A stretch of 64,000 nucleotides of DNA. Origin: Lentisphaerae bacterium GWF2_49_21. Its GTDB lineage: Bacteria; Verrucomicrobiota; Lentisphaeria; Victivallales; GWF2-50-93. The position numbers and the translations under genes were made by a program. The notes under the pieces were generated by a model that saw only the letters and a program-made list of their open reading frames with translations, had not been told where the DNA came from and did not search any database. Below, piece after piece: positions 8,806-18,797 of the stretch. Each line of letters begins with the position of its first letter. The first letter of the stretch is position 1. The DNA lies in assembly GCA_001804805.1 (NCBI GenBank), contig MHBH01000040.1, positions 62,001 to 126,000 of the forward strand, given 5' to 3'.

Positions 8806-8898
8806 CAAGTTATTAACACCCGAAATCATTAATAGTCATAACATCTTCATTGAATTACTGATAAGCCAAGCACTGTACCCTTTGCCTGAGGCTGAACG

Positions 8899-8926
8899 AC
8901 TTAACATAATGTATATTATGCGACGT
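8899..8926 (-). other. dif: dif chromosome-dimer resolution site / prophage attL
   Basis: Read on the - strand: an 11-base XerC arm ACGTCGCATAA (8916-8926), a 6-base centre TATACA (8910-8915), and an 11-base XerD arm TTATGTTAAGT (8899-8909). The XerD arm matches the E. coli dif arm TTATGTTAAAT at 10 of 11 bases, and the inner CGCATAA of the XerC arm is also identical to E. coli. The inovirus prophage begins at the XerC arm, so this is the junction where integration regenerated a complete dif; the phage side supplied the XerC arm. The site should mark the replication terminus. Confidence 0.88.
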
Positions 8927-8930
8927 TGCG

Positions 8931-8983
8931 GAAGTGACCAGGCCGGAAAGGACCTACGGCCTTTTATCCGGCCTGGTCACTTC
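8931..8983 (-). other. Strong hairpin after the secretin gene: candidate phage packaging signal or terminator
   Basis: A perfect 16-bp inverted repeat, GAAGTGACCAGGCCGG at 8931-8946 and its complement at 8968-8983, encloses a 21-base loop that itself can pair AAAGG with CCTTT. It overlaps the secretin stop codon and lies one base from the attP XerC arm. In Ff phages the packaging signal is a hairpin directly after gene IV on the virion strand, the same position and strand as here. There is no T-run after the stem, which argues against a simple rho-independent terminator. Confidence 0.6.
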
Positions 8984-10083
8984 ACTTTAACCGATACTAT
9001 GACATACATTGTTATTTTCTTCTCAGAATCATCGGAAGGCATAAACCATTGAAAAAACTCAAAAGCATTAAGGAAACCTGATTTCTTCTTTTCCTGCTTA
9101 TCAAGGTTGATCGATGCCAGGCATGTAGTAGCTTCATTTTTTGTAATCAATGTAGAATTCATAGAAACAATATCCTTTTGGTTAGATCCTTTCTGAACAG
9201 AATTTTCTAACTTAAATTCAACGTTCCAAATCTTTTCTTTAGAATCAAAAAAAGGTTCAACGTCAATCTTTAAACCAGTTTGAAACTGATTATATCCAGT
9301 CTTATAAATAGAACTTTGACCACCAACAGGAACGGCATCAAATATTTCCCTGTCCTCAGAAAACCCTAGAGTTATATTTGATTTCTTGCCAGAAACACAG
9401 GAAAGAGTATTATTGTAAATTTCCTTAAAATCCCTTACTGAAAAATCAGTCTTCACATCAAACGATACCTTGGAACCCTCAAAAAAATCCTTTACATCAA
9501 ATTTCCCACCCTTAAAAGTGTCAAAATCCAAATCTTTCATTTTAATAGTTGGATTAACCCCTATTCCAAAATTCTTTCCCTTATCAAATGATACCTGGAA
9601 TATATAAAAATAAACTTCACATGCATTCATCTTCTTTACCAAATCAATAGCCTCTGAAACATTCTTAACTTCTCTTTCATTTCCATGTATGACAACCTTG
9701 TCCCCTACTGTATCAGTCTTATCACCAAACTGCTTTGAAATATCCTTTATCCCAAATGTTTCACGGACATCATAAACTATTGTTTTACCACCAAAAAAGT
9801 AAATATCATCCTTGACCACATAATCACAGTTAAGGATCCATGAAAGAGTTTTAAGAAGCTTCTCGAGACTGTCAGTCTTTATACGAAGATTAAGCTTTTT
9901 CGTCTTGAATTCCTCAGAAACAACTATGTTAATCCCATAGTCTTCTGCAATCACCTGGAGAACTTCACTTGCAAGAACATCATCAAAAAAATACTCATTC
10001 TCTGATAACTCCGAGGTGGCTGCATTTGAAACGCTTACCAGAAGCGTCAGTGCAATAAACAAAATCCTTGTCAATTTTTTCAA
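8977..10083 (-). CDS. Phage outer-membrane secretin, pIV-like
   Basis: A 368-residue protein with an N-terminal signal peptide (KLTRILFIALTLLVSVSNAA). A short STN/N0-like domain follows (FFDDVLASEVLQVIAEDYG), then an N1-like ring-building domain (DVRETFGIKDISKQFGDK, VVIHGNEREVKNVSEAIDLV) and a C-terminal secretin core ending ITMYVIVSVKVK. In filamentous phages pIV forms the gated outer-membrane channel for virion exit and works with pI. The start is TTG at 10081-10083, supported by the ribosome site AAGGGGT nine bases before it, the same motif seen at other genes of this phage. It overlaps the pI gene by 89 bases in another frame. Carrying its own secretin means the phage does not depend on a host type II secretin, as CTXphi does. 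Confidence 0.92.
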   Translation of the reverse strand: MKKLTRILFIALTLLVSVSNAATSELSENEYFFDDVLASEVLQVIAEDYGINIVVSEEFKTKKLNLRIKTDSLEKLLKTLSWILNCDYVVKDDIYFFGGKTIVYDVRETFGIKDISKQFGDKTDTVGDKVVIHGNEREVKNVSEAIDLVKKMNACEVYFYIFQVSFDKGKNFGIGVNPTIKMKDLDFDTFKGGKFDVKDFFEGSKVSFDVKTDFSVRDFKEIYNNTLSCVSGKKSNITLGFSEDREIFDAVPVGGQSSIYKTGYNQFQTGLKIDVEPFFDSKEKIWNVEFKLENSVQKGSNQKDIVSMNSTLITKNEATTCLASINLDKQEKKKSGFLNAFEFFQWFMPSDDSEKKITMYVIVSVKVK

Positions 10084-11188
10084 TTTGATACCCCTTATAT
10101 AGTTCCCCTACCCTAATAGAAATTCCATTAGAATATTTTATCAACTTGTCAGTTCTAAGCTTGACTTTAATTTCCTCTGTCTTTTCCTTCTGATCCTTCT
10201 TTTCAACTGGAGCACTCAATGGTTTTTCAGACTTTGAAACAACATTATTTTCAGCTACTGCTTTGCTTTTATCAATATTTTCATTCTTATATTTTACCTG
10301 AATGGGAGCCATTGCCATCTTTAAATAAGCCTTGAAACAAAAGAAAACACCCAATATAAGACATGTAAAAAAAATCAATGTCATCTTAAATTGCCTAAAA
10401 AACTTTCTAAGTCCTACCCAGATAGACTGATTATAATCCGTGGACGATTGAGTCTTATCATTCACAAAGTTCCTGCCGACAACCCTTGAATTAGAAAAAG
10501 AATTATAACACCTGAAAATTTCCTTTTTTGAAGGAATAAAAAACCTGTCGGCCGCTGATTTTTCCCCGAACTCGAACCCCTCCACTATAAAGAACTGGAC
10601 AGGCCATTTAAGCCCCGTAAACCACCTTGAATTGACAATATTTGTGTATTTTGAATTACGTACAACATACAAATATTGAATTCCCCTTTTAATGAACGAA
10701 TCAAGATCCTGATAAGAATGAGAAACAAGGAAAATATCCTGTTTGAAATGCCCATGTTGACGAGACACGCTAAGAAGTTTTTTACGAAGATCCACATTCT
10801 TTTCCGACTTATCAAGATAATCAGTAGATGAAAAATATTCGTAAATCTCATCAAAAATTATGACTGAATTTTCCTTAACGTGCTCCCAGAAAGATTTTAT
10901 GTTCTTATCGGAAATTATATTTTCCTTGAAATGCCTGAAGAACATAGGATTCTTCCTTTGGAATTCACGAAGACTGAAAAAAGATGTATCCATGAAAATA
11001 TGTATCCTGGACATAAGCTCCGAATGCTCGAAAAGATTCCTGGACATATACCGAACAAGATAATCCGGATTGATAGGAAGATTTGTAAACACATGCCTTT
11101 TCGAATCGTTCAGGACAGGAAATATTATTTCCTTGACACAATAATAAGTCTTGCCAGCCCTCTGTTTGCCTGTAATAACTGATAACAT
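9995..11188 (-). CDS. Phage assembly ATPase pI (Zot family)
   Basis: A 397-residue protein with a Walker A motif at residues 7-14 (GKQRAGKT) and a hydrophobic strand ending in Asp-Glu (SVIIFDEIYEYF) as Walker B. The Zot-like signature region DIFLVSHSYQDLDSFIKRG follows. A single membrane helix (MTLIFFTCLILGVFFCFKAY, near 262-281) is followed by a Lys-rich periplasmic linker and a short terminal domain with two Cys (YCTDASGKRFKCS). This is the standard pI topology: cytoplasmic ATPase, one helix, periplasmic tail contacting pIV. It drives exchange of pV for coat protein during extrusion at the inner membrane. The ribosome site GCAGGGG lies upstream. The name Zot is historical and does not imply a toxin. 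Confidence 0.95.
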   Translation of the reverse strand: MLSVITGKQRAGKTYYCVKEIIFPVLNDSKRHVFTNLPINPDYLVRYMSRNLFEHSELMSRIHIFMDTSFFSLREFQRKNPMFFRHFKENIISDKNIKSFWEHVKENSVIIFDEIYEYFSSTDYLDKSEKNVDLRKKLLSVSRQHGHFKQDIFLVSHSYQDLDSFIKRGIQYLYVVRNSKYTNIVNSRWFTGLKWPVQFFIVEGFEFGEKSAADRFFIPSKKEIFRCYNSFSNSRVVGRNFVNDKTQSSTDYNQSIWVGLRKFFRQFKMTLIFFTCLILGVFFCFKAYLKMAMAPIQVKYKNENIDKSKAVAENNVVSKSEKPLSAPVEKKDQKEKTEEIKVKLRTDKLIKYSNGISIRVGELYKGYQIEKIDKDFVYCTDASGKRFKCSHLGVIRE

Positions 11189-11277
11189 CTTTCAGCCCCT
11201 GCTAAGTTACATTTACCCCTTTTAAACTGCGAATATGACATCCCTTGTCTCTGCTTTCCTGTAGTTGTATTCAACAT
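11125..11277 (-). CDS. Possible 50-aa ORF coupled to pVI, resembling a second pI start
   Basis: The ATG overlaps the pVI stop codon (TGATG), a typical coupling arrangement. The product starts MLNTTTGKQRQGMSYS, identical at 9 of 16 positions to the pI start MLSVITGKQRAGKTYY, with mainly third-base changes in the shared codons. After residue 16 it diverges and then overlaps the true pI start in another frame. It may be a decayed duplicate of the pI 5' end rather than a working gene; whether it is translated cannot be told. Confidence 0.25.
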   Translation of the reverse strand: MLNTTTGKQRQGMSYSQFKRGKCNLAGAERCYQLLQANRGLARLIIVSRK

Positions 11278-11675
11278 CAAAACACCTTGAATCTTAAAAC
11301 TACTTTAAGGACAAAAATAGATATGAAAAGCATTACAGAATAAGAAAAAATAAATAATGCGAAATCCAATGACTCGGATACTGGAATGAAATGATTTGCA
11401 TACATCAAATAATCAGAGGCATAATCAAATATTGAAAATGTATGTTCAAAACCTGTTACCTTAGGAAACAATTCCGAAAGTAGACCAAGTACCTTGTTTA
11501 AAAGATAAATTCCAAAGCTTGATAAAAATTCAAAAAGACTTTTGAAAAACAATGATATTAGAGTAAGAACAAAACCAGTTGCAATAGCTAAAAGGCTCAT
11601 ATGCTTCCCAGCTACAGAAGCAATTAAAGCAAGAAGTTTTCCAACCCAGCCAAACAATGATCCCCCGCCAGCCAT
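11277..11675 (-). CDS. Minor coat / tail-end protein pVI-like
   Basis: A 132-residue very hydrophobic protein with three probable membrane segments (LLALIASVAGKHMSLLAIAT, FVLTLISLFFKSLFEFL, and LFIFSYSVMLFISIFVLKVV) and a basic end (RFKVF). It sits between the pIII-like gene and pI, exactly where gene VI lies in Ff phages, and its size is close to pVI (112 residues). pVI caps the end of the virion together with pIII and joins in release from the membrane. Its ATG follows the pIII stop by one base (TGATATG), so translation is probably coupled. The family call rests on position, size and hydrophobicity. Confidence 0.78.
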   Translation of the reverse strand: MAGGGSLFGWVGKLLALIASVAGKHMSLLAIATGFVLTLISLFFKSLFEFLSSFGIYLLNKVLGLLSELFPKVTGFEHTFSIFDYASDYLMYANHFIPVSESLDFALFIFSYSVMLFISIFVLKVVLRFKVF

Positions 11676-11676
11676 A

Positions 11677-12822
11677 TCACACCTTCAACAGTAAAAATGT
11701 TATGGAAATTAACGAATAACATGCAAAAATAGCACATCCGAAAGATAAAAATCTTCTCGCATAAATCCTTACATCATCAACCCCCTGAGGAAAACTATTA
11801 AAATCCAAACTAATATTTCCTATCAAATTCCCTACCCAAGGAAGATCACTAAGAATAAAAACCTTTACAGGAGGCTTTGAATATCCATCGCCAAAACCTA
11901 TTCTTAATTTTTCTATTTCATCCCTCATTTTTTGGAACATGTCAACGCGAAAACTTTCAGGATTTACAGCTTCTTCTTGTAAATCCTGAAATTCATCCGG
12001 CATTTGAAATTGCCTTTCTTCAATAATAGGCTGTAAAACTTCAGGAGCATTTCCCGAATCATCTACAAGCTTTTCAAGTATATCGTCAAGTCTATCAACA
12101 ATTGTGTCAAGCCTTTCATTCACACCAATAAAACCAGCAGTAACAGCATCTTTAAGCGAATTTATAGCAGGAACATCATCGTCTGTATCAATACCGTCAT
12201 TTTCAACACCTTCTGCAAAAACCGCTGTAACAGTCCAATCAGAGCCAGGCATCACAATTTGATTGATTGCAACAGTTTCATCTTGTAATAAATTTTCGGC
12301 AGATTGCCATTTAACAAAATGACATCCCGCAGGAATTATAGGAGATATGTCTACAACAGTAAAAGGAGCATAATTTCCCGATCCGTTCCCGCCTGCTACA
12401 TTCAAATTAAATGTATCAGGTGGAACAATATTCAATGTATAAATTTCAATCGATCCAGAATAATCAGAGAAAACCCAATTTAACCATGTTGCAAATGTAG
12501 TATCATATTGACCGCTTATATTGTCATTTGTTATTATGACTTCTCCACCTCCCCAAATTCCATTTGTATTGTAAGGCAAACCAATATAATTAGAACGTGC
12601 TCCCCAGTTTCCTGCAGGTGCCACATACATATAAATAACCTGTGTTGAAATATTCTTTATTTTAAACGGTAATGGAATATGAGGAAAGCTACATGCAGGA
12701 GGTTCACCAGGAGAAAAATTATACGTGTTGTATAATTGCCAGTCTTGAGCTTTCGACATCGAACAAAAGGCCGTAATTATCACAAAAATAAATATTATTT
12801 TCCCTATTGAATTCACTTGCAT
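11677..12822 (-). CDS. Adsorption protein pIII-like
   Basis: I choose the ATG at 12822 because GGAG precedes it at good distance and it gives a clean signal peptide (IGKIIFIFVIITAFCSMSKA). The 381-residue product then has a beta-rich N-terminal region with Gly/Asn-rich segments (VAGGNGSGNYAPF) and an Asp/Glu-rich middle (DNIS..., NDGIDTDDDVP). A helical linker follows (VNERLDTIVDRLDDILEKL), and the C-terminal membrane helix ends in SISITFLLLKV-like residues. This is the pIII plan: exported receptor-binding domains, a linker, and a membrane anchor that ends the virion. The N-terminal domains resemble none I know, as expected for a host-range protein. It overlaps the 62-aa gene before it by 10 bases. 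Confidence 0.8.
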   Translation of the reverse strand: MQVNSIGKIIFIFVIITAFCSMSKAQDWQLYNTYNFSPGEPPACSFPHIPLPFKIKNISTQVIYMYVAPAGNWGARSNYIGLPYNTNGIWGGGEVIITNDNISGQYDTTFATWLNWVFSDYSGSIEIYTLNIVPPDTFNLNVAGGNGSGNYAPFTVVDISPIIPAGCHFVKWQSAENLLQDETVAINQIVMPGSDWTVTAVFAEGVENDGIDTDDDVPAINSLKDAVTAGFIGVNERLDTIVDRLDDILEKLVDDSGNAPEVLQPIIEERQFQMPDEFQDLQEEAVNPESFRVDMFQKMRDEIEKLRIGFGDGYSKPPVKVFILSDLPWVGNLIGNISLDFNSFPQGVDDVRIYARRFLSFGCAIFACYSLISITFLLLKV

Positions 12823-13001
12823 TGCTCCACAAAAAATTTGTATATGAAGATTCCCAGAAAGAAACAAAAAAGCATCTGGATAACGCCTATTTGCTGGATA
12901 AGAAAAGAATTATCACCAGTCTGCAAATTCAGAAGATTTTCGTTTACAACCCTAAGCTGATCCAGAATATTCAGCAAAGCATCTAATTGATCTTGATTCA
13001 T
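12813..13001 (-). CDS. Small phage membrane protein between pVIII and pIII
   Basis: A 62-residue protein: a helical N-terminal half (LDALLNILDQLRVVNENLLN), then one membrane helix (IGVIQMLFCFFLGIFIYKFF) and a short charged end. The ribosome site AAAGGGGTGG is the same style as elsewhere in this phage. By position and size it could be a minor capsid protein (pVII/pIX-like) or a pIII partner. No sequence family can be named. Confidence 0.65.
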   Translation of the reverse strand: MNQDQLDALLNILDQLRVVNENLLNLQTGDNSFLIQQIGVIQMLFCFFLGIFIYKFFVEQCK

Positions 13002-13052
13002 AATCCACCCCTTTAAAAACAGGGGAGAGGTTTGACCCCCTCCCCTACTCCG

Positions 13053-13304
13053 TCAAGCTTTCTTTTTGAACAGCAAACCGGAGATCAAGTTCCAAACGAA
13101 GAAAATCGCAGGAACTACGATGCAAGCGACCAGAAGACTTGCGATAATTATAAGTAGTGGACTTACAATCTCGCTGGGATTGAAAACAAGTGCTTCAAGA
13201 CCCGTCTTAGTGTTGTCAATCGTAAGGAATGCAGCTTCTGCATTCTGTCCGATAACAGCAACCATGGCCACAAGAGTCATAACTAAATATTTTACATATT
13301 TCAT
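13053..13304 (-). CDS. Major coat protein pVIII precursor
   Basis: The start at 13304 is set by GGGAG seven bases upstream. The 83-residue precursor has a 24-residue signal peptide with the cleavage site AEA/A. The mature part is about 59 residues: a short polar, partly acidic N-terminal segment (FLTIDNTKTGLEALVFNPSE), one long membrane helix (LLIIIASLLVACIVVPAIFF) and a Lys-rich end (LLFKKKA). This three-part plan, with the basic end facing the DNA inside the virion, is the hallmark of filamentous phage major coat proteins; Ff pVIII is 50 residues. It starts three bases after the stop of a 44-aa membrane protein, so the two are translated from one message. Confidence 0.9.
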   Translation of the reverse strand: MKYVKYLVMTLVAMVAVIGQNAEAAFLTIDNTKTGLEALVFNPSEIVSPLLIIIASLLVACIVVPAIFFVWNLISGLLFKKKA

Positions 13305-13306
13305 TG

Positions 13307-13441
13307 TCAGTGCTCCCAATGGATATTTTTTTCTTCTCCACCCCCGAGAACAAGAATTATGGCCTTCATTATGTTTGCAACCATGTGAATGAAGAACCCA
13401 ATCCCTACTCCCGCCAATATTACGACTATGTGATCAATCAT
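13307..13441 (-). CDS. 44-aa membrane protein, probable minor coat protein (pVII/pIX-like)
   Basis: A short gene with ATG at 13441 and ribosome site AAGGA nine bases upstream. Its 44 residues form one membrane helix (IDHIVVILAGVGIGFFIHMV and on through IMKAIILVLG) and a short charged tail (GEEKNIHWEH). It lies directly upstream of pVIII, the place of genes VII and IX in Ff phages (33 and 32 residues). The role at the virion tip that leaves the cell first is inferred from position, size and hydrophobicity. Confidence 0.65.
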   Translation of the reverse strand: MIDHIVVILAGVGIGFFIHMVANIMKAIILVLGGGEEKNIHWEH

Positions 13442-13524
13442 AGCTATAATTCCTTAATTAAAAACCCTGCTGAAAGGGGTATCCTATACAACAGGGAACC
13501 CGAAGGTTTTTAATTTTTCCCCTA
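13442..13524 (-). other. Phage intergenic region between replication and coat modules
   Basis: Contains self-complementary stretches: CCCTG/CAGGG around 13465-13492 and the short palindrome AACCCGAAGGTT beside a T-run (13498-13520). It could act as a terminator or a promoter region separating the early from the late genes. No clear -35/-10 pair was found, so the role is open. Confidence 0.3.
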
Positions 13525-13740
13525 TTAGACTTTAAACCCCTTCTTCTCAAAAAACTCTTTCAATGAATCCCTGCAAGACTTACAAATTCTCATTTGAACA
13601 CAACCATTAGATATAATTTTCATGTCATCTTTTTTGTTTGTGCAACATTGACAAATCCTAACATCCCTAGGATATGACCTAACATTAAAAAAACTTGGGT
13701 TTTCAACCGAACGAATATGTAAAAATTGTCCTAAAGTCAT
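13525..13740 (-). CDS. Small phage protein with a zinc-knuckle pattern
   Basis: A 71-residue protein with two Cys pairs, CQCC and CKSC, about 23 residues apart, suggesting a single zinc-binding site. It ends in a charged helix (DSLKEFFEKKGFKV). The start at 13740 has a strong ribosome site (TAAGGGGT). It lies directly after rep and before the coat genes. It could be a replication or transcription accessory protein of this phage, but I recognise no family. Confidence 0.6.
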   Translation of the reverse strand: MTLGQFLHIRSVENPSFFNVRSYPRDVRICQCCTNKKDDMKIISNGCVQMRICKSCRDSLKEFFEKKGFKV

Positions 13741-13754
13741 ATTTAACCCCTTAT

Positions 13755-14669
13755 TTAAAAAGTTCTTTTTGTATCAGCAATCCTTTCCATCTCATTCTTG
13801 AACAATCCCCATTGCACAGTAAAATATTTCTTAAATACATCCCTTGGCTGATGAAAAAATTCAACTTCGATAAGTTGCTTCCGCAATCTATGTCTAATCT
13901 GCTTATCACAGATTGCAAAAAATGCCTGGATACCTTCATGAAGAATAAAATATTCTGCAAGCTTTGTGAAAGTATTCTTTTTTGCAAAATAAAATTTCTC
14001 GTTATATGAAAGATTTCTGAAAGGATTATTCTTATCGTCATAATACCATGAAGAAAGCCAGTAAAAACCAGTTCTAATCTCAGATTCAACACGCCACCAT
14101 GAACCACCAATTTTAATATCAAACGACTCTTTTTGTTCCAAAGACTTATCATATATTCTCGTAAACTTATCTGATTTCTTTGATCCAAGATATACACTTT
14201 GCGCTCCTGTATCCTTACCCCAATAAACTGAATGTTTTCTCACATACTTATCACAAAAAGCCAACGGATTAACTTCCCTTCCATAATCGATAGCAACATC
14301 AATTCTAGACACATTGCATGAAATAAGCCTTCTTTTCCCGAGCATCTGTAAAAGTAAACAAATCTCATTCAGTTTGAGACTCGAGGGATTGAATTCAATT
14401 CTTAACTTCGAATCGGATTCAATCCCCCGACCCCAGCTTACAAAACAGTTATTGTACTTGACATTGAACTCGAATATTTTTGTTTCGCTGAACTCTTTTT
14501 GGCATCCATCCAATAATGAGTATAAAATCTTGTAAAAGTTTTTCGAATATAAATCATTTTTATGTAAGCTTGGGATCTCAAAAACCAGAGCCAACTTATC
14601 AATACTCAAAACTGGCTCGGTATCAATTTGAATACTTTTACCCGCTGTTAGACAGGGGGTAAAAGCCAT
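13755..14669 (-). CDS. Phage replication initiator (Rep_trans / RstA-like)
   Basis: A 304-residue protein with motifs of the Rep_trans family used by CTXphi RstA and pT181-type plasmids: RIDVAIDYG, QSVYLGSKKSDKFTRIYDK and GSWWRVESEIR. The Tyr in RIYDK is a candidate nicking residue. The enzyme should nick the double-stranded replicative form at the plus origin and start rolling-circle synthesis of viral strands. It follows the ssDNA-binding gene by three bases, so the two form an early operon driven from the divergent promoter region near 15000. The nick site was not identified; the gene-free stretch 15404-15675 is the most likely place. Confidence 0.87.
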   Translation of the reverse strand: MAFTPCLTAGKSIQIDTEPVLSIDKLALVFEIPSLHKNDLYSKNFYKILYSLLDGCQKEFSETKIFEFNVKYNNCFVSWGRGIESDSKLRIEFNPSSLKLNEICLLLQMLGKRRLISCNVSRIDVAIDYGREVNPLAFCDKYVRKHSVYWGKDTGAQSVYLGSKKSDKFTRIYDKSLEQKESFDIKIGGSWWRVESEIRTGFYWLSSWYYDDKNNPFRNLSYNEKFYFAKKNTFTKLAEYFILHEGIQAFFAICDKQIRHRLRKQLIEVEFFHQPRDVFKKYFTVQWGLFKNEMERIADTKRTF

Positions 14670-14672
14670 AGC

Positions 14673-14939
14673 CTATACCTTTCTTTCTTCAATTTTTACA
14701 ATCACCTGGGGAACGGCAACAGCCATTACACGCTTGAAAAGATAAGTAGTCTCCATCTTCGATTCGACCTGGATATTCACCTTTGAACCCACAGGAGGCA
14801 GCACTGGAAGCGAACAAGGGGCATTTATAGCCCCACCTTCATAGTCTACAGTGACATACTTTGAAATTTGACCCTGCTCGTTTTTCTTAGGATCACCGAT
14901 TCTTGAAACTGTCCCAGACACTAAAATCATTGATTTCAT
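14673..14939 (-). CDS. Phage ssDNA-binding protein (pV-like)
   Basis: An 88-residue protein with an alternating beta pattern expected of an OB fold: MILVSGTVSRIGDPKK, KYVTVDYEGGAINAPC, VGSKVNIQVESKME. pV-type proteins coat new viral single strands and switch replication towards packaging. The size agrees with Ff pV (87 residues). A strong ribosome site (AAAGGGG) precedes the ATG at 14939. It is the first gene after the leftward promoter and is placed before rep, unlike Ff phages where it follows gene II. The call rests on size, strand pattern and context. Confidence 0.75.
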   Translation of the reverse strand: MKSMILVSGTVSRIGDPKKNEQGQISKYVTVDYEGGAINAPCSLPVLPPVGSKVNIQVESKMETTYLFKRVMAVAVPQVIVKIEERKV

Positions 14940-14979
14940 CGTTCACACCCCTTTTTTTGAAGTTTTTCTAACTTTGTTA

Positions 14980-15000
14980 TGTAAGATGATTAATCTTACA
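14980..15000. promoter_or_regulatory. Palindromic operator overlapping the leftward phage promoter
   Basis: TGTAAGAT and its exact complement ATCTTACA flank a 5-base centre. The palindrome covers the proposed leftward -10 box TAAGAT (14993-14998 read on - strand), whose -35 would be TTGTTA at 15015-15020 with a 16-base spacer. More AAGAT/ATCTT half-sites lie at 15024-15095. It is probably the binding site of the divergent regulator. Confidence 0.6.
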
Positions 15001-15049
15001 TTTCATAGATAATCTAACAATACTAAGATTTAATTTCAATCTTCACGTA

Positions 15050-15077
15050 TTGATTTTGTCCATAAACATCTTATAAT
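15050..15077 (+). promoter_or_regulatory. Promoter of the divergent phage regulator
   Basis: A -35 box TTGATT (15050-15055) and a perfect -10 box TATAAT (15072-15077) with a 16-base spacer precede the start codon at 15107. An ATCTTATAATGAAGAT partial palindrome overlaps the -10, so the regulator may also control itself. Confidence 0.55.
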
Positions 15078-15106
15078 GAAGATAAAACATATCTTAGAAG
15101 TGTAAT

Positions 15107-15403
15107 ATGAATGACTATAAAAAATGGTTTACAGATTCATGGAACGAAAGCTGTGGACTTGTCAGCCCTAAAAAAATCAGCACTCTTTTAGGTCTTTCAG
15201 GAGGATCAGCATCTGTTTTACCAATATGGGAAAAGAAAAAATTCAAAATCTACAGATATTCACCAAAAAGCAGACCATTACTTGCATGGAAAGACTACCT
15301 AACAGAAGAACAAGACAGAAGAGACAAGATTAACGGTAAAGCTTCAAAAACAGCCCTTTCCATTGAATCTGAGGGCATCACAGAGAATGACAATAAAGCC
15401 TAA
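15107..15403 (+). CDS. Small divergent phage regulator, probable repressor
   Basis: A 98-residue basic protein, the only prophage gene on the + strand, facing away from the replication genes across an operator-rich region. Residues 18-45 (SPKKISTLLGLSGGSASVLP) have a helix-turn-helix-like pattern in which a Leu-Gly-Leu turn separates two short helices. This layout matches RstR of CTXphi and other inovirus immunity repressors in position, though I see no direct sequence link. The tail after residue 75 is polar and probably disordered. Its likely role is to hold the leftward early promoter shut in the lysogen. Confidence 0.65.
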   Translation: MNDYKKWFTDSWNESCGLVSPKKISTLLGLSGGSASVLPIWEKKKFKIYRYSPKSRPLLAWKDYLTEEQDRRDKINGKASKTALSIESEGITENDNKA

Positions 15404-15675
15404 GATTTCTTTTTATGTCCAAAGTCAAAATACCCAACTTTCCAAATTTCCCTGTTAAAACTGGAAAAAACCTTCACAGAAACACGTCAAATTTCAATTT
15501 TTAAGAGGCAATCCATATCCCAATACCCCCTATTTTACAACTTCATGCCAACAAATATTTTCATCAATCGCCAAAAACTTAAAAAAATATTTAGCCTCAT
15601 TTTAGCTTTTTCGGGATCAGCTGCAGAACCAGGAGCCTGACGGCCAGCCGAAAATCAGTTACTACATAATAAAAG
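15404..15675. other. Phage gene-free region, candidate replication origin
   Basis: AT-rich with no convincing gene on either strand. Around 15608-15655 an imperfect inverted repeat pairs TTTTTCGG with CCGAAAA across a GC-richer middle containing CAGCTGCAG and GGAGCC. A stable hairpin in the intergenic region is where rolling-circle plus and minus origins lie in filamentous phages, so this is the best origin candidate. Confidence 0.4.
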
Positions 15676-15768
15676 CAACGATCGCATAATATCGTTATGC
15701 CTTTTCCAATTTATGAAAGAAGAATCAGGGAGGAGAAAAGACATAAGCTATCCATTATGCGACGTTGC
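15676..15768 (-). other. Prophage attR with folded attP hairpin (XerC and XerD arms)
   Basis: In the viral (-) strand two regions can pair. GCAACGTCGCATAAT (15754-15768) pairs with 15676-15691 over 15 bp with one bulged base, forming an XerC-type arm. TTATGTCTTTTC (15735-15746) pairs with 15695-15707, forming an XerD-type arm. The arms are separated by an unpaired centre of 4 to 8 bases and closed by a loop of about 25 bases. CTXphi uses exactly this plan, a folded single-strand attP that XerC joins to dif. The XerC strand at the right edge is host-derived after integration; the phage copy is at 8915-8929. Confidence 0.75.
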
Positions 15769-15938
15769 CAGCCTGGCGGCTTTAATCTATTAATGCTTCT
15801 ATATGGTTAACATAATCTATAATATTTATATTAATCATTCCCCTATCCTTTTGACTTTTATACTTGCCTTTATTTCTTCTGGTATCAAATTAATCAATCA
15901 CATTATTTATGTTCATCTTAACTGAATAATTTATTATC
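15769..15938. other. Host intergenic DNA between attR and the restriction gene
   Basis: AT-rich with no gene or clear hairpin seen. It probably contains the promoter of the type IIG restriction gene at 15939, whose ATG lacks a clear ribosome site. Confidence 0.4.
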
Positions 15939-18797
15939 ATGCCTTTAAGCTGGAATGAAATCAATAAAAGAGCAATTGAGTTTTCCAACGAGTGGAAAGA
16001 AGTCAACTGCGAACGGTCGGAAGCTAAATCCTTTTGGGATTCCTTCTTCAATGTCTTCGGAATATCCCGCAAACGTATCGCAACCTTTGAAGAACCTGTA
16101 AAGCTAATTGGCGATAAACATGGTTTTATCGACTTGTTTTGGAAAGGCACTCTTTTAGTTGAACATAAATCAAAGGGGAAAGACCTTAATAAGGCTTATT
16201 CTCAGGCTTTAGATTATTTCTCTGGCCTCAAGGAATATGAACTTCCCAAATATGTCCTTGTATCTGATTTTGAAAGATTGCGCCTTTACGATCTTGAAGA
16301 TGGCTCCGAGAGCGAGTTCAACCTCTCTCAGCTTCATGCAAATATTCATCTTTTCGGATTTATCGCAGGTTACAGGAAGCAAACCTATAAAGATGAGGAT
16401 CCTGTCAATATAAAGGCCGCAGAATTGATGGGACGGCTCCATGACAAACTACTTGAATCCGGCTACTCTGGACATCAGCTTGAACTCTTTCTTGTCAGGA
16501 TACTTTTCTGTCTTTTTGCCGATGATACTGGGATATTCGAAAAAGGTACTTTTGCTGAATATGTAGAGCAGATGACCCCCGACGGTTCGGATACTGGCTC
16601 AAAGCTCGCACATCTTTTCCAGGTCTTAAACACCCAGGAAGCACAACGACATAAGACACTTGACGAAAGACTTGCTCAATTCAGGTATATTAACGGGAAA
16701 CTATTTGAAGAACCCCTTCCCCTCGCCTCGTTTGACTCCTCAATGAGAAACTCTTTCCTGGAATGCTGCTATTTCAACTGGAGCAAGATATCGCCGGCAA
16801 TATTCGGTTCCCTTTTCCAGTCCGTTATGGATCCGGAGAAAAGAAGGAATATTGGCGCTCATTACACTTCTGAAAAGAATATTCTCAAGGTCATAAAACC
16901 TCTCTTCCTTGATGAGCTCCAGTCTGAATTCGATGGAATTAAGAACGTCAAGACAAAGCTTCGCGTTTTTCATGATAAGATTGCATCTCTGAAATTCTTC
17001 GATCCTGCCTGCGGCTGTGGAAATTTCCTTGTAATAACCTACAGGGAGCTGCGGCTTCTCGAAATCGAGATACTCAAGGTCCTCCACAAACATGGCGACA
17101 TCCTCGATATAAAATATTTCTCCAAGATTGACGTCGATTCGTTTTACGGAATTGAAATCGAGGAGTTCCCTGCAAGGGTTGCGGAAGTCGCAATGTGGCT
17201 GATGGACCATCAGATGAACATTAAATTGTCTGAAGCTGTCGGCGACTACTTTGTCCGTCTTCCGCTCCAGAAGTCTGCGAACATCGCAAACGCGAACGCC
17301 CTCCAGCTTGATTGGAACAGCTTTATGCACGGGGATTATTTCGACGTGTCCGCCAATGTGGTGAACGTCGGCATTGTCAAAGAGCCTCGCGCACATTATG
17401 ACACCATCAACGTACTTGCCAAAAAGCTCAACGTCGTGGATGAAAAGGAAATCCAAAGCCAGCAGGACATGCATGGCATGAAATTCGATTATATTCTAGG
17501 GAATCCTCCCTTCATTGGCAAACATCTGCGAAATTCGCAGCAGGACTCCGACATGGACTTGGTTTTTCAGAGCATGAAAAATCACAAGTCCCTCGACTAC
17601 GTCACGTGCTGGTATCTTAAGGCCGCCCAATATATACAGGACACAAAAACCAAAGTGGCATTTGTCTCCACCAATTCTATTTCGCAGGGTGAACAGCCGG
17701 GGATATTATGGAATGAACTCTATCATAAATATCATATCAAGATTCATTTTGGACATAGAACGTTCAGATGGAACAACGAGGCAAGGGGAATGGCCCATGT
17801 TTATGTCGTAATAATAGGCTTCGCGAATTATGACACAAACAGAAAGTTTATCTATTATTATGACAGGCCTGATTCCGAGGCGCATGAGATGCCTGCGAGC
17901 AATATAAATCCTTATCTTGTTGAGATGAGCGACATCGTAGTATTGTCAAGGAAAAAAGCAATATCTCCTGTTCCGGAAATCATCTATGGAAATAAACCTG
18001 TTGATGATTGTAATCTAATTCTGACAGATGAGGAGAAGAATTCCCTTATAAGCTCAGAACCTTTGTGCAATAAGTTTATAAGGCCTTTAATCAGTGCAAA
18101 AGAATATTTGAATAATCAGAAAAGATGGTGTGTCTGGCTTGTTGGCTTGGAACCTAGCGAATTAAAACAATTACCCGATATAATGCTTCGCGTCAAAAAA
18201 GTTCGGGAATTCAGATTAGCGAGCAAAAAGATACCTACTCGAAAATCTGCAGACATCCCTGCCCTATTTGCTGAAATCCGCCAGCCTCAAGACAATTATA
18301 TTTTAATTCCACGTCACACTTCCGAGAACAGGAAATATGTCCCTTTTGGCTTCTTCTCTCCTGATTATATCGTTCATGACAGTTGTGCGTGTATTCCGAA
18401 CGCCACGTTGTATCATTTCGGAATGCTTAGTTCAGAAATGCACATGATATGGATGCGATACGTCTGTGGAAGGCTGGAAAGCCGTTTCAGATATTCTAAT
18501 GACATCGTCTATAATAATTTCCCATGGCCGGACAAACCTTCGGAAAAGAACATGAAGTTAGTGGAGCGGTCGGCCCAGCGGATTCTGGATGTACGAAAAG
18601 AGTTTCCTGACAGTTCGCTTGCGGAACTATACGATCCACTTTCTATGCCTCCTGCCCTAATCAAAGCACACAAGGAACTCGACAAGGCAGTCGATCTCTG
18701 TTACCGTCCACAGGGATTCTCCGATGAAATGAAACGGATTGAATATCTGTTCAGCCTGTATCAGAAATATACAGAACCGTTGCTGAAGAAGAAATAA
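15939..18797 (+). CDS. Type IIG restriction-modification enzyme, MmeI-like
   Basis: A 952-residue single-chain enzyme. Near residues 65-80 it has a PD-(D/E)XK nuclease core, an Asp nine residues before Glu-His-Lys (IDLFWKGTLLVEHKSKG), which is the D-X9-EXK spacing of MmeI. A helical connector follows, then a gamma-class N6-adenine methyltransferase: SAM motif DPACGCGNF and catalytic motif GNPPFIGKH. The C-terminal third should hold the target-recognition domain. MmeI-type enzymes methylate one strand and cut about 20 bases away, and need no separate restriction gene. It stands next to the prophage attachment site and is followed 11 bases later by hydE, an unrelated gene. Confidence 0.88.
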   Translation: MPLSWNEINKRAIEFSNEWKEVNCERSEAKSFWDSFFNVFGISRKRIATFEEPVKLIGDKHGFIDLFWKGTLLVEHKSKGKDLNKAYSQALDYFSGLKEYELPKYVLVSDFERLRLYDLEDGSESEFNLSQLHANIHLFGFIAGYRKQTYKDEDPVNIKAAELMGRLHDKLLESGYSGHQLELFLVRILFCLFADDTGIFEKGTFAEYVEQMTPDGSDTGSKLAHLFQVLNTQEAQRHKTLDERLAQFRYINGKLFEEPLPLASFDSSMRNSFLECCYFNWSKISPAIFGSLFQSVMDPEKRRNIGAHYTSEKNILKVIKPLFLDELQSEFDGIKNVKTKLRVFHDKIASLKFFDPACGCGNFLVITYRELRLLEIEILKVLHKHGDILDIKYFSKIDVDSFYGIEIEEFPARVAEVAMWLMDHQMNIKLSEAVGDYFVRLPLQKSANIANANALQLDWNSFMHGDYFDVSANVVNVGIVKEPRAHYDTINVLAKKLNVVDEKEIQSQQDMHGMKFDYILGNPPFIGKHLRNSQQDSDMDLVFQSMKNHKSLDYVTCWYLKAAQYIQDTKTKVAFVSTNSISQGEQPGILWNELYHKYHIKIHFGHRTFRWNNEARGMAHVYVVIIGFANYDTNRKFIYYYDRPDSEAHEMPASNINPYLVEMSDIVVLSRKKAISPVPEIIYGNKPVDDCNLILTDEEKNSLISSEPLCNKFIRPLISAKEYLNNQKRWCVWLVGLEPSELKQLPDIMLRVKKVREFRLASKKIPTRKSADIPALFAEIRQPQDNYILIPRHTSENRKYVPFGFFSPDYIVHDSCACIPNATLYHFGMLSSEMHMIWMRYVCGRLESRFRYSNDIVYNNFPWPDKPSEKNMKLVERSAQRILDVRKEFPDSSLAELYDPLSMPPALIKAHKELDKAVDLCYRPQGFSDEMKRIEYLFSLYQKYTEPLLKKK

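What the first reader, a model, noticed from the sequence alone, without database searches (positions are those of the whole stretch)
15676..15768. CTXphi-type folded single-strand attP at the prophage right end
On the viral strand the two halves fold into an XerC arm (15 bp, one bulge), a short unpaired centre and an XerD arm (about 12 bp), closed by a loop. This is the plan by which CTXphi integrates single-stranded DNA using only XerC. Finding it here suggests the mechanism extends to phages outside Proteobacteria.
Basis: partly seen in the sequence, partly recalled or inferred. Interest (0 to 1): 0.9.

Follow-up and report, generated by a model that had tools for sequence, protein, structure and literature searches.

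The report
Folded single-strand integration site of phage
A filamentous phage living in a bacterium far from the cholera germ carries a DNA stretch that folds on itself into a copy of the host's own recombination site, most likely so that its single-stranded genome can slip into the chromosome with host enzymes; the trick is known from the cholera phage, and here it recurs in several related phages with changed letters but the same fold.

Summary
The strand read 15768 to 15676 folds into the described two-arm hairpin (-18.0 kcal/mol, z -5.3, 0 of 200 shuffles as good). It is the right end of a 6839-bp filamentous prophage (8916-15754, most genes on the minus strand) inserted at the XerC border of dif; a complete dif stands at the left end (8899-8926). 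A same-genus genome shows the empty site with the same dif centre. The host shares its order with Victivallis vadensis (Lentisphaeria). The same fold occurs in 6 of 137 genomes of the order (5 by pattern, reversed control 0, plus the window), among them V. vadensis and a perfect tandem array. In these the first 11 XerD-arm positions always pair while six change on both sides. The same pattern found 17 viral contigs; all 24 hairpins fold better on the presumed viral strand. No phage recombinase was recognised; the host has XerD and an XerC-like protein. Best reading: CTXphi-type integration of single-stranded DNA by host XerC. Mechanism inferred, not assayed. Prior art: CTXphi, Ypf, CUS-1, and a CTX-like second dif in Bacteroidetes microviruses. 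New member of a known kind.

The parts
8916..15754 (-). filamentous prophage, 6839 bp, between the two inferred XerC cut points
   Evidence: empty-site alignment with a same-genus genome; gene content
15755..15768 (-). attP1 side, XerC arm (host-derived after integration): GCAACGTCGCATAA
15747..15754 (-). attP1 centre, 8 nt, TGGATAGC (phage)
15735..15746 (-). attP1 XerD arm TTATGTCTTTTC
15707..15734 (-). loop, 28 nt (the MFE puts three pairs in it)
15695..15706 (+). attP2 XerD arm TTATGCCTTTTC (in attP2's own reading direction)
15690..15694 (+). attP2 centre, 5 nt, TATCG; its first three bases equal those of the host dif centre
15675..15689 (+). attP2 XerC arm with one extra (bulged) base at 15681
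8899..8926 (-). complete dif (ACGTCGCATAA TATACA TTATGTTAAGT): phage XerC arm, host centre and XerD arm
8977..10083 (-). probable pIV/secretin-like gene (Pfam FecR_C E 4.5e-7)
   Evidence: name by position, inferred
9995..11188 (-). Zot/pI-type assembly ATPase
   Evidence: Pfam Zot E 3.5e-9; PHROG 197 E 5.7e-20
11277..11675 (-). small membrane protein, pVI-like by position
   Evidence: inferred, no family hit
11677..12867 (-). probable adsorption protein, pIII-like by position
   Evidence: Pfam Flg_new_2 repeat E 4.2e-6; role inferred
12813..13001 (-). short frame, perhaps a minor coat protein
   Evidence: no significant family
13053..13319 (-). probable major coat protein by size and position
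   Evidence: inferred
13525..13740 (-). short frame of unknown role
13755..14669 (-). Rep_trans-type replication initiator
   Evidence: Pfam Rep_trans E 4.3e-11
14673..14939 (-). small protein, perhaps pV-like single-strand binding protein
   Evidence: position only; no family hit
15107..15403 (+). divergent small gene, perhaps a repressor
   Evidence: position only
8931..8984 (-). strong 17-bp hairpin at the 3' end of the phage, candidate packaging signal or terminator
   Evidence: fold of 8926-8990: -24.9 kcal/mol, z -9.57; function inferred

Best explanation
It is the phage attachment site attP of a filamentous phage, built to work as folded single-stranded DNA. Two dif-like half-copies in opposite orientation pair on the viral (gene-coding) strand. 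The pairing makes one double-stranded XerC arm and one double-stranded XerD arm with a mismatched centre between them. The host XerC/XerD pair binds this imitation dif together with the chromosomal dif. XerC cuts each at the border of XerC arm and centre and exchanges one strand; XerD only helps. Because the unequal attP centre (8 and 5 nt) does not fit the 6-bp dif centre, the second exchange is blocked and host replication is left to finish the insertion. The product is a prophage with a dead site at its 5' end and a working dif at its 3' end, which allows repeated insertion in tandem. Shown by sequence: the fold, the insertion point, the complete dif at the 3' end, a tandem array in a relative, changes on both sides of the XerD arm, and a strand bias over 24 hairpins. 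Inferred: which strand is packaged, protein binding, XerC-only chemistry, the block of the second exchange, resolution by replication.
For: Fold -18.0 kcal/mol, z -5.3, 0 of 200 shuffles as stable. The left-end dif is the only exact match to CGCATAATNNNNNTTATG in the 5.9-Mb host assembly. Empty site in a same-genus genome: left flank aligns through the dif, right flank continues after it, same centre TATACA. A relative has two identical 8627-bp prophages in tandem, ending in dif. Same fold in 6 of 137 genomes of the order (5 by the pattern, reversed control 0, plus the window, whose 5-nt attP2 centre that pattern excludes) and in contig L096. In these 7 hairpins all 77 cells of the first 11 XerD-arm positions pair (G.T included) although 6 positions change on both sides; attP1 centre 8-11 nt, attP2 centre 5-6 nt. 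The same pattern found 17 viral contigs; all 24 hairpins are more stable on the attP1-first strand, with 25 G.T against 0 A.C among arm differences in the first 8 XerD-arm positions. That strand is also the Zot-coding strand in 13 of 13 viral contigs where a Zot frame was found (all 13 confirmed as Pfam Zot). The first three bases of the dif centre can pair with the attP2 strand in 6 of 6 lineages. Of 12 matches to the XerD model in the host, the best is over the XerD cut-off (363 bits) and the second has XerC as its best model (325 bits, under its cut-off of 335). No integrase hit among the 9 prophage proteins or the 10.
Against: No experiment. attP1 can pair with the dif bottom strand over only 2 bases in 5 of 6 lineages and 0 in V. 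vadensis, whereas CTXphi attP1 shares three bases with dif1 (PMC3089051, table seen). Re-pairing attP2 and dif among lineages kept 6 of 6 in 36 of 720 permutations, so fit to the own host is weakly specific. Ascertainment: the pattern itself asks for an attP1 centre of 7-12 nt, an attP2 centre of 6 nt and pairing at XerD positions 1, 2, 3 and 5, so these features are not independent evidence for the hits found only by it (G089, G409 and the 17 viral contigs). Strand bias: in the order alone it rests on about 5 independent G.T pairs; a wider scan of whole attP stems gave 24 G.T to 3 A.C, and other hairpins in 16 phage sequences 136 G.T to 85 A.C, so part of the bias is general, and relatedness inflates the counts. 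In the 17 viral contigs 7 of 136 arm cells do not pair. The coding strand is also the RNA strand, so an RNA hairpin could cause the same bias. In one genome with Zot and dif (G364) no attP was found. In V. vadensis, G197, G089 and G409 the attP lies at a contig end, so its continuity with phage genes is inferred; for G409 no phage gene was looked for beyond the Zot profile, which did not hit.
Confidence: 0.86

Rival explanations
1. Double-stranded integration of the VGJphi kind: one dif-like site in the replicative form recombines with dif by XerC, and the inverted second site is irrelevant or regulatory.
For: The junctions alone (XerC-side crossover, dif kept at the 3' end) would look the same. 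The window attP1 has an 8-nt centre, which Xer tolerates at cer (recalled).
Against: attP1 centres are 8, 9, 9, 9, 10, 10 and 11 nt in the 7 hairpins of the order and L096 (two of them found by a pattern that asked for 7-12). attP2 and the XerD-arm pairing are kept with changes on both sides in each. All 24 hairpins fold better on one strand.
Confidence: 0.07
2. A transcription terminator or RNA hairpin at the end of the phage transcripts that only resembles dif.
For: In V. vadensis the XerD arm runs on into A5-GCCCCGGC...GCCGGGGC-T5, which looks like a two-way terminator (by eye). RNA pairing would explain the coding-strand G.T bias.
Against: The XerC arm matches host dif exactly and forms the prophage boundary; the unequal centres have no reason in a terminator. 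The terminator scan does not decide it: it allows loops of 3-8 only, and its single site (15764-15780, + strand) overlaps the outer arm by 5 bases without being formed by this hairpin.
Confidence: 0.04
3. An invertible DNA switch: inverted dif-like sites recombined as double-stranded DNA.
For: Other genomes of the order carry inverted pairs of dif-like sites about 80-105 bp apart, some at the start of pilin-like genes.
Against: In the pairs printed in full the two sites have equal 6-nt centres; here they are unequal in length and sequence (8 against 5 nt), and the pair is a prophage end.
Confidence: 0.01
4. A replication origin or packaging hairpin only.
For: Filamentous phages carry such hairpins between genes (recalled).
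Against: A separate, stronger hairpin exists at 8931-8984; the attP arms track dif.
Confidence: 0.02

Closest known systems
CTXphi attP(+) of Vibrio cholerae
   Same: Two inverted dif-like sites; longer attP1 centre (12 nt) and shorter attP2 centre (6-7 nt); XerC-side insertion leaving one functional dif; tandem integration; host XerCD instead of an own integrase (PMC3089051, part 1 of 3 read; passages of PMC4246890).
   Different: Hairpin here is about 90 nt against about 150; the longest match to the dif centre lies in attP2 rather than attP1; the window's Rep and Zot proteins have no tblastn match at E 1e-5 in 50,697 phage records; host is Lentisphaeria.
YpfPhi and CUS-1Phi (Enterobacteriaceae)
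   Same: [quoted passage not shown] Both are listed with CTXphi in PMC4246890 (passages).
   Different: Gammaproteobacterial hosts.
BMV microvirus proviruses of Bacteroidetes
   Same: Single-stranded DNA phages at dif; BMV4-6 have a second dif-like site near one end, called reminiscent of CTXphi-like vibrioviruses by the authors (PMC3091885, passages).
   Different: Microviridae, not filamentous; the words hairpin and stem do not occur in that main text.
VGJphi and TLCphi types
   Same: Filamentous phages or satellites using XerCD at dif (PMC4246890, PMC5357621, passages).
   Different: Single 28-29-bp attP used as double-stranded DNA.
Integron attC sites
   Same: A single strand folded into a recombination site (recalled; PMC3089051 mentions integrons as a single-stranded case).
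   Different: Recombined by the integron integrase, not XerCD (recalled); not a phage end.

Membership tests
CTXphi-type IMEX (folded ssDNA attP) | two dif-like sites in inverted orientation near one end | tested here: met
CTXphi-type IMEX (folded ssDNA attP) | stable two-arm hairpin on the viral strand | tested here: met
   the viral strand is taken to be the coding strand, not proved
CTXphi-type IMEX (folded ssDNA attP) | insertion at the XerC side of dif, functional dif left at one end | tested here: met
   empty site; that the dif functions is inferred from its sequence
CTXphi-type IMEX (folded ssDNA attP) | no phage recombinase, host XerC and XerD present | tested here: met
   the XerC assignment is by best model, just under the curated cut-off
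CTXphi-type IMEX (folded ssDNA attP) | pairing of the first central bases to stabilise exchange | tested here: inconclusive
   dif to attP2 strand 3 or more in 6 of 6; attP1 to dif 2 in 5 of 6 and 0 in 1; 36 of 720 re-pairings as good
CTXphi-type IMEX (folded ssDNA attP) | single-stranded DNA is the substrate; only XerC catalysis needed | not testable with these tools
   needs an assay
CTXphi-type IMEX (folded ssDNA attP) | tandem arrays | tested here: met
   two identical 8627-bp copies in G278; the window's own genome has one Rep and one Zot match, so one copy
VGJphi-type IMEX | single dsDNA attP | tested here: not met
   two inverted sites with unequal centres of 8 and 5 nt
Filamentous phages (Tubulavirales) | Zot/pI assembly ATPase in a small gene cluster | tested here: met

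The most novel reading that the evidence does not exclude
Folded single-strand attP sites mark a broad class of filamentous phages reaching at least the Lentisphaeria, recognisable without protein homology: two inverted dif-like sites with a longer first centre, a paired XerD arm, and arm differences that are mostly G.T on the viral strand (hence A.C on its complement), so that the incoming viral strand makes a good site and its complement a poorer one. In the Victivallales members the attP2 strand, rather than attP1, is the main partner of the dif centre.
Probability: 0.45. Interest if true: 0.65.

Novelty: new member of a known kind. Interest (0 to 1): 0.52.

Why it matters
Integration of single-stranded phage DNA through a folded site has been worked out in detail for the cholera phage. 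Here the same anatomy stands, with other letters, in a distant bacterial phylum and in a cultured species (V. vadensis DSM 14823, a human gut isolate as I recall). That gives an independent natural test of which features of the fold matter, and a pattern that finds such phages without protein homology. It also shows another lineage in which a phage without a recognised integrase can lodge in an XerCD host.

Tried and rejected
Single-sequence Rep search in the viral collection: 17 stretches, no relative. Rep in 50,697 phage records: none; Zot likewise. Zot profile in the viral collection: one weak hit over 48 residues, no dif pair seen, dropped. The Rep hit in G302 is at a contig edge and its dif has no phage attached in the stretch seen; dropped. 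G364 has Zot and dif, but its attP was not found; not counted as positive. The loose inverted-repeat pattern gives at least as many control as true hits in 4 of 6 genomes, so it served only to locate sites. The pattern has no shuffle control; its reversed control was run only in the genome search. The MAFFT alignment of 5 hairpins misaligns the 3' XerD arm; pair counts use fixed arm positions instead. Two viral hairpin folds failed at contig ends and were repeated with shorter flanks. In one search the attP stems of the window and of G278 were not recognised as such, because the linear phage sequences begin after the XerC arm, and were counted under 'other'. Strand bias inside the order alone is too thin to stand by itself. 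Literature: searches.

Full report
What is there. The 93-nt stretch read from 15768 to 15676 folds as single-stranded DNA into the structure described: XerC side of 14 bp (15 with base 15675) with one bulge, unequal centre (8 and 5 nt, with three weak pairs in the MFE), XerD arm of 12 bp, loop of 28 nt; -18.0 kcal/mol, z -5.30, 0 of 200 shuffles as stable. The complement folds at -15.3. The dif-like pattern occurs three times in the 64 kb, at 8905, 15682 and 15742, against 0.01 expected.

Surroundings. Between these sites lie genes, all but one on the minus strand, for a Rep_trans initiator, a Zot/pI ATPase and small membrane and coat-like proteins (roles other than Rep and Zot by position). 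The 1-kb windows from 9001 to 16000 have 33-37% G+C against 44-52% in the 9 kb to the left. No integrase was recognised. The complete dif at 8899-8926 is the only exact match to CGCATAATNNNNNTTATG in the 5.9-Mb assembly; four other places match with one mismatch.

Empty site. In G235, of the same genus, the left flank of the window aligns up to and including dif (8897-8925, 29 of 29) and the right flank resumes 42 bases later (81% over 4.1 kb); its dif centre is TATACA, as in the window. So the prophage is 8916-15754, 6839 bp. The exact cut lies somewhere in the 15 letters GCAACGTCGCATAAT shared by the two ends and is placed at the XerC border by analogy.

Host. V. vadensis belongs to Lentisphaerota, Lentisphaeria, Victivallales. 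The order is therefore very likely Victivallales.

Relatives. A Zot profile from two sequences hit 5 of 137 genomes of the order, the window's own included. In G278 two identical 8627-bp prophages stand in tandem and end in dif. Attachment hairpins were found in G278, G197 and V. vadensis without using the later pattern, and in L096, a 7503-bp contig binned as Porphyromonadaceae whose Zot is 92% identical to that of V. vadensis (the bin label is probably wrong). A tighter pattern was then run on all 137 genomes: 5 matched (G197, G089, G409, G278, G009), with 0 in the reversed control; the window is a sixth, excluded by the pattern's 6-nt attP2 centre. G089 has a Zot gene (Pfam E 1.4e-5) and other phage-like frames upstream of its dif on another contig, although the Zot profile had missed it. 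For G409 only the hairpin and dif are known. G364 has Zot and dif without a found attP.

Conservation of the fold. Over the 7 hairpins (6 genomes plus L096) all 77 cells of the first 11 XerD-arm positions pair; positions 4, 7, 8, 9, 10 and 11 change on both sides (position 4: T-A, C-G, A-T). In G089 and G409, found by the pattern, positions 1, 2, 3 and 5 were asked for. G278 and G409, and V. vadensis and L096, share arms, so there are about five independent arms. The XerC heptamer never varies here and says nothing. Centres (attP1/attP2) are 8/5 window, 11/6 G278, 10/6 G409, 9/6 G197, 9/6 V. vadensis, 10/6 L096 and 9/6 G089 nt.

Strand. The same pattern found 17 contigs in IMG/VR. In 13 of them a Zot frame was found, always on the attP1-first strand, and all 13 are Pfam Zot; in the other 4 none was found. 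All 24 hairpins fold better on that strand. Arm differences in the first 8 XerD positions are 25 G.T, 0 A.C and 7 others. A wider scan of stems in 16 phage sequences gave 24 G.T to 3 A.C in recognised attP regions and 136 to 85 elsewhere, so part of the bias is general; relatedness inflates the counts. The hosts of the 17 are not known to me; the best tblastn matches of two of their Zot proteins are Pseudomonas phages for one and animal-associated inovirus records for the other.

Exchange rule. Taking strand exchange as described for CTXphi (PMC3089051), the first three dif centre bases can pair with the attP2 strand in 6 of 6 lineages with a known dif, and attP1 with the dif bottom strand over 2 bases in 5 and 0 in 1. 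The chance product for the first is about 3e-8 under uniform letters, but 36 of 720 re-pairings among lineages also give 6 of 6, because the dif centres resemble each other.

Recombinases. Of 12 matches to the XerD model in the host the two best were examined: a XerD over the curated cut-off (363 bits) and a protein best matched by XerC (325 bits, cut-off 335); V. vadensis shows the same pair (348 and 319 bits).

Mechanism. Best supported: CTXphi-type integration, XerC-catalysed, of the folded viral strand into dif, finished by replication. Sequence shows product, fold and conservation; chemistry is inferred.

Known and new. RS1, YpfPhi and CUS-1Phi are the listed relatives of CTXphi in a 2014 review (PMC4246890, passages). 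Bacteroidetes microviruses with a CTX-like second dif were reported in 2011 (PMC3091885, passages). Filamentous phages from deep-sea Lentisphaerae were reported in 2024; 'Xer' and 'dif site' do not occur in that main text (PMC11361711, passages). The large inovirus survey has no 'XerC', 'attP' or 'Lentisphaer' in its main text (PMC6813254). I found no earlier statement of a folded attP in Lentisphaeria in the searches, which cover open-licence PMC papers only and of which I saw listings.

Verdict. The finding stands and is strengthened. It is a new member of a known kind in a phylum new for it among filamentous phages, as far as searched; the strand rule is the most novel part and needs a wider, phylogeny-aware count.

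Noticed in passing
L052-L054, L057-L065 (genomes of the same order): Several genomes of the order carry inverted pairs of full dif-like sites about 80-105 bp apart. In 5 of the 14 regions fetched (L057, L058, L061, L063, L064) the site at one end holds, by eye, the start codon of a pilin-like frame (M-R-x-F-T-L-I-E-L). In L057 against L064 (two genomes of one genus, 92% alike) the centre changed in the same way in both sites, as expected for an Xer-type invertible switch; no inverted form was seen.
   Followed up: partly
window 8931-8984, minus strand: Hairpin with 17 perfect pairs between the last phage gene and dif (z -9.57); candidate packaging signal or terminator.
   Followed up: partly
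L096 (CASEAJ010000032.1, 7503 bp): Phage contig with Zot 92% identical to the V. vadensis phage and a REP_ORF2-G2P type Rep, unlike the window's Rep_trans; binned as Porphyromonadaceae; its two ends look alike, perhaps a circular genome.
   Followed up: partly
window 15939-18797, plus strand: MmeI-type restriction-modification gene directly beside the prophage end.
   Followed up: no
L090 and L092 (V. vadensis): The chromosomal flank before attP1 resembles, by eye, the phage's own 3' end over about 60 nt, as if an older related prophage stood there.
   Followed up: no
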